A stretch of DNA of 64,000 bases from Thermoleophilaceae bacterium (GTDB lineage: Bacteria; Actinomycetota; Thermoleophilia; Solirubrobacterales; Thermoleophilaceae). The position numbers were made by a program, and so were the translations under genes. The stretch is from the NCBI GenBank assembly GCA_036378175.1, contig DASUWY010000018.1, positions 1 through 64,000 on the forward strand, given 5' to 3'. Every line of letters starts with the position of its first letter. The first letter of the stretch is position 1. The notes beneath the pieces are model-generated. The model searched no databases, was not told the origin of the DNA, and was given only the letters and a program-made list of their open reading frames with translations. This document shows positions 31,484-33,746 of this stretch, one piece after another.

Positions 31484-32359
31484 TCAGGGTCGCCACGCCG
31501 GGTTTGAGGCACCGCGGCTGATGCGGTGGGCGTTCGAGCCGTCGCGATTCATGATCCACACGGAATCCTGGCTCGGCCGGCTGCCGAGGCGCGCGTACAC
31601 GATCTGACTGCCGTCCCGCGACCACTCGGCGCGATACCCCCGGCCCAGCAGCCGCCCGCCGCCACCCGCGCTCGGCGCGACATAGACCCCGCCGTCGGGC
31701 CCCGTGTACACGATCATGCGCCCATCCCGGGACCAGTGCGCATCGCGGCCCCGAACGATCAGCCGGCGCCGGCTGCCATCGAGCCGCGACGAGATCACGT
31801 GGCCGCAGCCACTGCGTGCTCGGTGGCACGCGGCCGGCCAGTCCTGCGGAATCGTGGACCAGTACGAGTAGGCGATTCTGCCGCCGGGCGCCCACCCCGG
31901 ATACTCAACCTCGGTAGGCCGGCGGGTGGGGACGGATCGCCCACCCGTCCCATCAGGGTGAACGATCCTCAGCGCCCCGTTCGACCGGTAGGCGATCCAG
32001 CGTCCATCGGGCGACCATGAAGGGCTGTAGTCAAAGCGCCCGCGCGTGATGCGTCGCACACCCTTGCCATCCGCGCGCATGACGTAGATCTGAAAAGACC
32101 GGCGACCGTCGGCAGTGCGGGTGAACGCCAGGCGCGAGCCGTCAGGCGACCACGCGGGCTCACTGTCCTCGCGCCCGGCGCGCCGCTTGGTGAGCACAGC
32201 CAGCCGGCGCCCCGACGGATTGATCAGCACCATCCCCCCACTCCCATCTCCGCCATTGTGAGTGGCCAGCGAAACGGCAATCTGCTCGGGCGCGGGCGGT
32301 GTTGCCGCGTTGCCAAAAGCGGCCAGCAGCCCGACAGCCAGGACGAACAGATAGATCAC
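31484..32359 (-). CDS. TolB-like PD40 beta-propeller, exported
   Basis: A 291-residue protein with an N-terminal signal sequence (YLFVLAVGLLAAFGNAA) and repeated WSPDG blades: EPAWSPDGSRLAFTR, SPSWSPDGRWIAYRS, YPGWAPGGRIAYSY, DAHWSRDGRMIVYT and RAEWSRDGSQIVYARL. No catalytic domain is attached. It converges with the preceding secreted-protein gene with seven bases between, and is paralogous to the protein encoded at 34936-35835. Confidence 0.88.
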   Translation of the reverse strand: MIYLFVLAVGLLAAFGNAATPPAPEQIAVSLATHNGGDGSGGMVLINPSGRRLAVLTKRRAGREDSEPAWSPDGSRLAFTRTADGRRSFQIYVMRADGKGVRRITRGRFDYSPSWSPDGRWIAYRSNGALRIVHPDGTGGRSVPTRRPTEVEYPGWAPGGRIAYSYWSTIPQDWPAACHRARSGCGHVISSRLDGSRRRLIVRGRDAHWSRDGRMIVYTGPDGGVYVAPSAGGGGRLLGRGYRAEWSRDGSQIVYARLGSRPSQDSVWIMNRDGSNAHRISRGASNPAWRP

Positions 32360-32512
32360 GACCCGACGCTAGGAACGATCCGCCCGCCAGCCATCGGTGC
32401 CCGCCCGCAAAGATGAACGGCGGACTACTCGATCAAACGGTTCGGGGCTTGCATGGCGGAGTGGCGTCGCTCGTATGAAGCGGGTTCGGTGCGCCAGAGC
32501 GCCTGAGCGACC

Positions 32513-32638
32513 ACCGCCCATGGTCAGGCGAGCGAGGAGCGAGTCTGACGAGGACGCAGGGTGTGGATAGTGCTCCGCACATCCACACCCCGAGGACAAA
32601 GTCAGACGACGCTCCGCAGCCGCCTGACAATGGGCGGT
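32513..32638. repeat. 126-base imperfect palindrome that includes the tRNA-Val 3' end
   Basis: The left arm from 32513 and the reverse complement of the right arm from 32638 agree over most of 62 bases. ACCGCCCAT(G/T)GTCAGGCG differs at one position, then AGC-GGAGCG, GTCTGAC and GGGTGTGGAT match. The centre is a perfect 10-bp stem (32559-32568 with 32581-32590), one bulged base, a 4-bp stem and a TCC loop at 32574-32576. The right arm contains the 3' acceptor strand of tRNA-Val. No T-run follows, so it is not a simple terminator. Confidence 0.8.
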
Positions 32639-32703
32639 ACTGGGCTCGAACCAGTGACCCCCAGCTTGTCGAGCTGGTGCTCTCCCAACTGAGCTAACCG
32701 CCC
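32631..32703 (-). tRNA. tRNA-Val (anticodon GAC)
   Basis: A complete cloverleaf read on the minus strand: acceptor GGGCGGT/ACCGCCC, D-arm GCTC...GAGC, anticodon stem CCAGC/GCTGG with loop TCGACAA, five-base variable loop and T-arm ACTGG-TTCGAGC-CCAGT, then discriminator A. The anticodon reads GAC (Val). CCA is not encoded. Position 33 is C where nearly all tRNAs have U. Confidence 0.9.
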
Positions 32704-32744: not shown

Positions 32745-33746
32745 CTAGGCGCCGACGGGCTGCGCGGGGTCCGGCACGGCGGCCGTCCCGCCGTCTCCGT
32801 TCGCCGGCAGCTTGCCCCGCGCGCGCATCGCGATCTCGAACGTCTCGCGCGTGGAATGCCGCGGCTTCCACCCCACCGACTTGAGCTTGTCGTTGGCCAC
32901 CACCCACGGGTGGAGGGCGAAGTGAAGGTTGCCGGGCGGGGTCTCCGACTGGTGCAGCTTCCACATCATCCCCGCGAGCCGCCACGCCATCTTCAAAGGC
33001 ATCTTGCGCCGCTTCATCCCGATGATGTCGCCGCACTCGTTGATGGTCAGCGTGCCGTCGCCCCCAACGTTGAAGGCGCCGCCGTGCCTTCCCTCGATCA
33101 GCAGGATCAGACCCTCCACGAGGTCGTCCTCGTGCACGAACTGCATCGGCGTGTCGCCCCCACCCACGTCCATCTGGAAGGGCTGGTCGGTCCACAGCCG
33201 GACGATGTAGTTGTTCACGTTCGGCCCGAGCACGATGCAGGGACGCACGATCGTCATCACGCGGTCGGGATTGCGCAGCGCCCAGAGCTGGCAGAGGCGA
33301 TCGCACTCGGCCTTGTCACGCGCGTACTCGAAGTCGGGAACGCCGCGCACCGGCTGGTCCTCCGAGATCGGCACCGGGTTGTCGGGGAAGGCGCCGTACG
33401 CGGTGGCCGACGAGGTGACGAGCATCTGCTGCACCCCGGCGTTCTCCGCCGCCTCGAGCACGTTCTGCGTCCCGCCCACGTCCACCTCGTACATGCGGAA
33501 CTCGTCGTGGATCGGGTTGAGGAGGAACGCGAGATGGATCAGCACGTCCGGCTTCTCCCGCTCGATCACCTCGCGCACGCGCGCCTTGTCGGTCACGTCG
33601 AGCTGCTCGAACTCCGCCTTCGGGCGAAACGAGCTGGGCGGGCGGACGTCGCAGATGAGGATGCGCTCGACGTCGTCGCGCTGCGAGAGCCGCTCCACCA
33701 ACCGGCTGCCGATGTAGCCGGACCCTCCGGTCACGAGATAGCGCAC
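32745..33746 (-). CDS. NAD-dependent epimerase/dehydratase (extended SDR)
   Basis: A 333-residue extended short-chain dehydrogenase. MRYLVTGGSGYIGSRLVERL has the TGxxGxxG motif, VTSSATAYG is the active-site serine region and FEYARDKAECDR carries YxxxK. It looks catalytically complete, acting on a nucleotide sugar or similar; the substrate is unknown. It begins near the hairpin at 33771 and ends 41 bases before tRNA-Val, both on the minus strand. Confidence 0.9.
   Translation of the reverse strand: MRYLVTGGSGYIGSRLVERLSQRDDVERILICDVRPPSSFRPKAEFEQLDVTDKARVREVIEREKPDVLIHLAFLLNPIHDEFRMYEVDVGGTQNVLEAAENAGVQQMLVTSSATAYGAFPDNPVPISEDQPVRGVPDFEYARDKAECDRLCQLWALRNPDRVMTIVRPCIVLGPNVNNYIVRLWTDQPFQMDVGGGDTPMQFVHEDDLVEGLILLIEGRHGGAFNVGGDGTLTINECGDIIGMKRRKMPLKMAWRLAGMMWKLHQSETPPGNLHFALHPWVVANDKLKSVGWKPRHSTRETFEIAMRARGKLPANGDGGTAAVPDPAQPVGA

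What the first reader, a model, noticed from the sequence alone, without database searches (positions are those of the whole stretch)
32513..32638. 126-base palindrome whose right arm includes the 3' end of tRNA-Val
The two arms match over most of 62 bases, with a perfect central stem. The left arm therefore carries an inverted copy of the tRNA acceptor 3' strand and the sequence downstream of it. This is far larger than a terminator and could be a fold-back duplication, a mobile-element footprint at a tRNA, or a processed structured RNA that affects tRNA maturation.
Basis: seen in the sequence. Interest (0 to 1): 0.56.

Follow-up and report, generated by a model that had tools for sequence, protein, structure and literature searches.

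The report
Mobile DNA hairpins at gene ends
The 126-base palindrome beside this tRNA gene is one copy of an apparently undescribed family of dispersed DNA hairpins in a class of bacteria, which sit at the ends of genes and often carry a reversed copy of the end of the gene they sit next to.

Summary
The palindrome is real (minus-strand fold -87 kcal/mol, z -10.3), but it is neither a one-off nor specific to tRNA-Val. It belongs to a family of ~120-190-nt palindromic elements. The window's genome has at least 21 strong copies; six abut tRNA 3' ends (Val, Lys x2, Asp, Pro x2). The family is widespread in the class (112 of 299 genomes) and nearly absent elsewhere in the phylum sample (3 one-hit genomes). 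In 56 of 71 copies a gene 3' end lies within 30 nt of the leading edge, in sense orientation. Orthologous junctions are occupied in some genomes and cleanly empty in others, even within the window's genus. Middle arms and an unpaired internal loop are conserved; tip and base stems vary but stay paired. In the window's family the base stem often runs into the host gene, so the far arm is an inverted copy of that gene's end (8-12 nt in all six tRNA cases). Best reading: non-autonomous mobile hairpins whose outer arms are copied from the host gene end by template switching. The mobilising enzyme is unknown. New variant of a known kind.

The parts
32513..32638 (-). palindromic element (R2 match 32512-32639), sense strand = that of tRNA-Val
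   Evidence: fold -87.0 kcal/mol, z -10.3; R2 120.5 bits, the only match in the window
32631..32703 (-). host gene tRNA-Val(gac); its last 8 nt are inside the palindrome
   Evidence: ARAGORN, Rfam RF00005 64.9 bits
32621..32638 (-). host-side outer arm: tRNA 3' end plus the following 10 nt
   Evidence: 18-nt arm aligned outward from the core (own_L172)
32513..32530 (-). far outer arm: inverted copy of the tRNA 3' end and following bases
   Evidence: 18-nt arm, score 15.5; control
32591..32600 (-). internal loop, first strand (TTTGTCCTCG)
   Evidence: unpaired column block conserved in the family alignment
32549..32558 (-). internal loop, second strand (TGCGTCCTCG)
   Evidence: same
32559..32590 (-). 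tip hairpin with the motif TGTGCGGAGCACTAT; GCRGAGCACTAT occurs six times in the genome, always in a tRNA-linked copy

Best explanation
The palindrome is a recent copy of a non-autonomous mobile palindromic element (it behaves like a MITE or REP) of the class Thermoleophilia. Shown: many copies per genome; empty and occupied orthologous junctions; position at gene 3' ends, mostly in sense orientation; a common anatomy (variable paired base, conserved middle arms, conserved unpaired internal loop, variable paired tip); outer arms that in many copies are an inverted copy of the host gene's own end. Inferred: an unknown enzyme places the element at stop codons and tRNA 3' ends. The base stem is written or rewritten by replication template switching: the nascent strand folds back at the hairpin and copies the gene end in reverse. 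Only copying from the constrained gene side into free intergenic DNA survives selection.
For: 21 copies below E 1e-7 in the own genome; family in 112 of 299 class genomes. Clean empty sites: tRNA-Val occupied in 1 of 12 syntenic loci; rpsR-rplI 10 occupied, 1 remnant, 13 empty of 24; rplE-rpsN 3 of 30 occupied, gap 165-168 nt against -1 to 12. Gene 3' end within 30 nt of the leading edge in 56 of 71, trailing edge 12 of 71; 20 of 23 with more than 150 nt of free space after them still abut the gene. Mirror: arm score above the 95% point of swapped flanks in 76 of 95, above the 99% point in 55 of 95. Mismatches outside four consensus wobble columns are G-U 32, A-C 35, as expected for copied arms that decay. 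Mirrors follow diverged orthologous gene ends (L072, L099). A short direct copy of the tRNA end follows the mirror in 7 of 12 tRNA copies (6 nt or more; control 27 of 132).
Against: No transposase or other enzyme was identified. In the second set, mostly other families, only 7 of 26 meet the same 30-nt rule and arms usually stop at the stop codon instead of entering the gene. The strict gene-only mirror test is positive at the 95% point for just 17 of 56. The internal loop stays unpaired in all copies, so homogenising template switches cannot act freely; some selection or a requirement for mobility must keep it. Stop-codon duplication is exact in some copies only.
Confidence: 0.6

Rival explanations
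1. A cis-acting RNA: the transcribed hairpin at mRNA and tRNA 3' ends terminates transcription, protects from exonucleases or is a processing site, and pairing is kept by selection on the RNA.
For: Sense orientation at gene ends; strong covariation (504 double-change cells against 156 shuffled); the wobble U-G at columns 29:128 is never broken in 54 copies; conserved internal loop.
Against: G-U 32 against A-C 35 outside consensus wobble columns; the antisense strand folds better in 45 of 54. Copies lie between essential co-transcribed ribosomal genes. The only terminator-like pattern at the window copy lies within the leading arm, not after the hairpin. Presence/absence within genera.
Confidence: 0.2
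2. A switch of tRNA maturation: the far arm competes with the tRNA 5' strand for the acceptor 3' strand and delays or controls processing.
For: In the joint fold of tRNA and element the acceptor 3' strand pairs with the far arm; six tRNA genes carry it.
Against: Same element at protein genes; the same tRNA-Val lacks it in 11 relatives.
Confidence: 0.07
3. A REP/BIME-type repeat moved by a RAYT (Y1 transposase).
For: Dispersed palindromes next to gene 3' ends, as reported for REPs (PMC3733652, passages read).
Against: PF01797 found in 0 of the 31 genomes of the window's family and in 3 of 61 relatives in all; 120-190 nt rather than 20-40.
Confidence: 0.04
4. A one-off fold-back duplication at this tRNA.
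For: The same-genus genome lacks it.
Against: An 85% identical core behind tRNA-Lys(ctt) and a genome- and class-wide family.
Confidence: 0.01

Closest known systems
REP / BIME, including CGTC-tagged REPs (PMC3733652)
   Same: Dispersed palindromes, close to the 3' ends of genes, variable stems; CGTC REPs lack a known transposase (paper's first part and passages read)
   Different: REPs are 20-40 bp with a GTAG or CGTC tag at one end; these are 120-190 nt single hairpins with an internal loop and host-fitted outer arms; no RAYT in the family
ERIC/IRU and other bacterial MITEs (PMC2759123, PMC2229807, PMC10969869: search listing only)
   Same: About 127 bp (ERIC, from the listing), dispersed, palindromic, intergenic
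   Different: Different sequence and hosts; host-derived inverted arms are not something I know of in ERIC (recalled, not tested)
Rickettsia palindromic elements (RPE)
   Same: Small dispersed palindromes that live in or at genes
   Different: RPEs lie in frame inside open reading frames (PMC3733652 background); these lie at gene ends
Template-switch mutations that create and repair hairpins (PMC8794818)
   Same: A single event writes a reverse-complement copy next to its source and keeps arms paired (abstract and part of Results read)
   Different: Described for microRNA and rRNA stems, not for a dispersed element that does so at each host gene

Membership tests
MITE (non-autonomous inverted-repeat transposable element) | short, non-coding, dispersed, with long terminal inverted repeats | tested here: met
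   21-24 copies in the own genome, ~120-190 nt, palindromic throughout
MITE (non-autonomous inverted-repeat transposable element) | insertion polymorphism with an empty site | tested here: met
   rpsR-rplI, rplE-rpsN and tRNA-Val junctions
MITE (non-autonomous inverted-repeat transposable element) | direct target-site duplication of fixed length | tested here: inconclusive
   stop codon repeated in G226 (TAA) and G128 (TAG) but different stop codons on the two sides in several others
MITE (non-autonomous inverted-repeat transposable element) | an autonomous partner with the same ends | not tested
   only PF01797 was searched; no search for long copies was made
REP with RAYT | RAYT (Y1_Tnp) gene in the genome, flanked by the repeats | tested here: not met
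   0 of 31 family genomes
REP with RAYT | 20-40 bp hairpin with a terminal GTAG or CGTC tag | tested here: not met
   120-190 nt; CGTC occurs in the internal loop, not as a terminal tag
intrinsic terminator | GC-rich hairpin followed at once by a T-run | tested here: not met
   no T-run after the palindrome in the window; one pattern hit within the leading arm
Rfam-described structured RNA | match to a curated covariance model | tested here: not met
   no match besides tRNA at gathering score in the window; none of note at E up to 1 in five loci

The most novel reading that the evidence does not exclude
A new type of mobile DNA hairpin that integrates at stop codons and tRNA 3' ends by a mechanism that writes the target's end back in inverted orientation (self-primed fold-back synthesis), so that each insertion is custom-fitted to its host gene.
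Probability: 0.27. Interest if true: 0.8.

Novelty: new variant of a known kind. Interest (0 to 1): 0.6.

Why it matters
It adds a class-wide family of gene-end palindromes in a poorly studied bacterial class, sitting at tRNA genes and inside core ribosomal operons. The host-fitted arms together with empty sister sites give a natural experiment on how long palindromes arise and are kept: copying by template switching and selection on RNA can be told apart with more genomes. It also warns that strong covariation need not mean a functional RNA.

Tried and rejected
One-off fold-back: rejected by further copies. tRNA-only feature: rejected, most copies are at protein genes. REP/RAYT: rejected for lack of PF01797. 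Rfam family: none. Phage or plasmid origin: no blastn match. RNA-level selection as the main cause of the pairing: not supported by the G-U versus A-C count nor by strand stability, though the unbroken U-G at columns 29:128 speaks mildly for it. ORF context by longest ORF was unusable in this GC-rich DNA and was replaced by frame-composition scoring. A first swap control had a maximum of 40.5, which I put down to a tandem pair in one locus; one search excludes same-locus pairs. Integron attC sites were considered from memory for their position after stop codons and set aside by eye, without a test. Rows dropped before counts: 7 own-genome rows of the relatives list (counted instead), own_L187 and own_L193 (partial hits) in the mirror tests, 4 weak S18-like loci (L255-L258) in the rpsR count. 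In the rplE set 3 of 30 junctions (L272, L275, L280) were not called by the script and are read as empty by eye. Literature: searches listed no description of this family; subscription papers and preprints were not searched.

Full report
Observation. The inverted repeat at 32513-32638 is real and far beyond chance: on the minus strand it folds as one hairpin at -87.0 kcal/mol against -48.2 (sd 3.8) for shuffles. The minus strand carries tRNA-Val(gac) at 32631-32703, so in transcription order the tRNA comes first and the palindrome follows it, sharing the last 8 nt. Upstream lies an NAD-dependent epimerase gene (32745-33746, minus), downstream a PD40-repeat protein gene (31484-32359, minus).

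More copies in the genome. A DNA search of the window's genome found an 85% identical copy on another contig and weaker ones; the first four of these lie next to other tRNA genes. The tip motif GCRGAGCACTAT occurs six times in the genome, once in each of the copies behind tRNA-Val(gac), Lys(ctt), Lys(ttt), Asp(gtc), Pro(ggg) and Pro(cgg): 6 of the 48 tRNA matches. In each of the six the outer arm matches that tRNA's own acceptor end.

The family. A covariance model from these six (R1) found matches in 53 of 101 genomes (own included) at E<=0.001. Reading them showed the same anatomy mostly at stop codons of protein genes. A second model from 54 copies (R2) gave 24 hits in the own genome at E<=0.01, 21 of them below 1e-7, and at E<=1e-8 matches in 112 of 299 genomes of the class and in 11 of 296 of a phylum sample, 3 of the latter outside the class. 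Only some candidates per genome are scored, so counts are lower bounds. The 16 contigs with a consensus pattern bear titles of Thermoleophilaceae, Solirubrobacterales or less closely named Actinobacteria/Actinomycetes/Actinomycetota MAGs. That the class is Thermoleophilia rests on these names. The window holds one copy.

Anatomy. From the gene outward: a base stem of variable sequence; conserved middle arms (about GCTGCAAACCGTCGCCTGGC and GCCATGCTCGGTTTTCGC); a conserved unpaired internal loop (GCGTC[A/C]TCGG on one strand, CTCTTCCTTG or CTGCGTCCTTG on the other); and a tip hairpin of variable stem. Pairing holds in 87.8% of cells, with 504 double-change cells against 156 in shuffles. Outside four columns where G-U is frequent by consensus (19:135, 27:130, 29:128, 38:120), G-U cells number 32 and A-C cells 35 (summed from the column counts), and the antisense strand folds better in 45 of 54. 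That fits copying of one arm from the other followed by decay better than selection on RNA pairing. The consensus U-G at columns 29:128, never broken in 54 copies, is a reservation.

Position. Of 71 elements (24 own, 47 from relatives), 56 have a gene 3' end within 30 nt of the leading edge, mostly -9 to +3 nt; 12 have one at the trailing edge. Where more than 150 nt of free space follows, 20 of 23 still abut the gene. A further set of 26, mostly from other families, gave only 7 of 26 by the same 30-nt rule. Inspection shows why: there the element is longer and the gene ends at about -33, at its outer terminus, which often reads AGTG...CACT overlapping the stop codon. That 'the element starts at the stop codon' holds there too is a reading made after the fact.

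Empty and occupied sites. tRNA-Val: element in the window's genome, none in the other 11 epimerase/tRNA-Val loci, including the same-genus G001. rpsR-rplI: 10 occupied (one antisense), 1 remnant and 13 empty of 24; the own genome is occupied and G001 empty; G013 is occupied and its congeners G022 and G027 are empty. rplE-rpsN: 3 of 30 occupied, with gaps of 165-168 nt against -1 to 12 nt in the 24 empty ones that the script called. In G226 the junction reads TAA-element-TAATGG where G118 reads TAATGG. These are clean insertions in ribosomal operons; S18 and L5 are confirmed by Pfam, L23, L2, S14 and L9 are named by eye from translations.

Mirror. The outward arm score has median 10 in 95 elements against 3.5 in 570 swapped flanks; 76 exceed the control's 95% point and 55 its 99% point. 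Into the gene itself the mirror reaches at least 9 nt in 22 of 56 against 10.1% of swaps, and at least 1 nt in 48 of 56 against 44.3%. A stricter, unanchored test with the last 20 nt of the gene alone is positive for 17 of 56 at the 95% point and 12 of 56 at the 99% point, and the own flank is the unique best match for 13 of 56. So the mirror is sure as a population feature and plain in all six own tRNA copies (8-12 nt of tRNA each), but not in every copy. Orthologous hosts show it following the gene: the ends of a gene shared by G003 and G001 (thiolase-like by eye) differ, and so do their mirrors (L072 and L099). At tRNAs a short direct copy of the tRNA end often follows the mirror (7 of 12 with 6 nt or more, control 27 of 132), as expected if synthesis returned to the original template within the tRNA end.

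Mechanism. Shown: dispersal, gene-end position, presence/absence differences, arm copying as a statistical pattern. Inferred: an enzyme that inserts at gene ends (unknown) and template switching that writes the host end into the far arm. The general mechanism is described in PMC8794818 (abstract and part of the Results read). REPs share the gene-end position (PMC3733652, first part and passages read), but the family has neither their size nor a RAYT.

Verdict. A real and, as far as the searches show, undescribed family of gene-end palindromes; the window copy is one recent member. New variant of a known kind, with an unusual host-fitted base stem.

Noticed in passing
L033 (own C48) versus L145 (G001 C270): tRNA-Lys(ttt) appears inverted relative to its neighbour gene between the own genome and G001: the sequence upstream of the tRNA in one is, reverse-complemented, downstream in the other.
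   Followed up: no
window 32631-32703 versus L158-L164: The acceptor stem of tRNA-Val in the window is GGGCGGT/ACCGCCC while most relatives have GGGCCGT/ACGGCCC: one base pair is flipped on both sides.
   Followed up: no
L047 (own C16:71194-71907): The contig end carries the same tRNA-Glu(ctc) twice in inverted orientation, which may be an assembly fold-back.
   Followed up: no
L086 (G034), L247 (G013), L189 (own C82): Tandem or partial repeated copies of the element follow one another at one gene end.
   Followed up: no
L245 (G005 rpsR-rplI): One element at the rpsR junction lies in antisense orientation, against the sense rule.
   Followed up: partly
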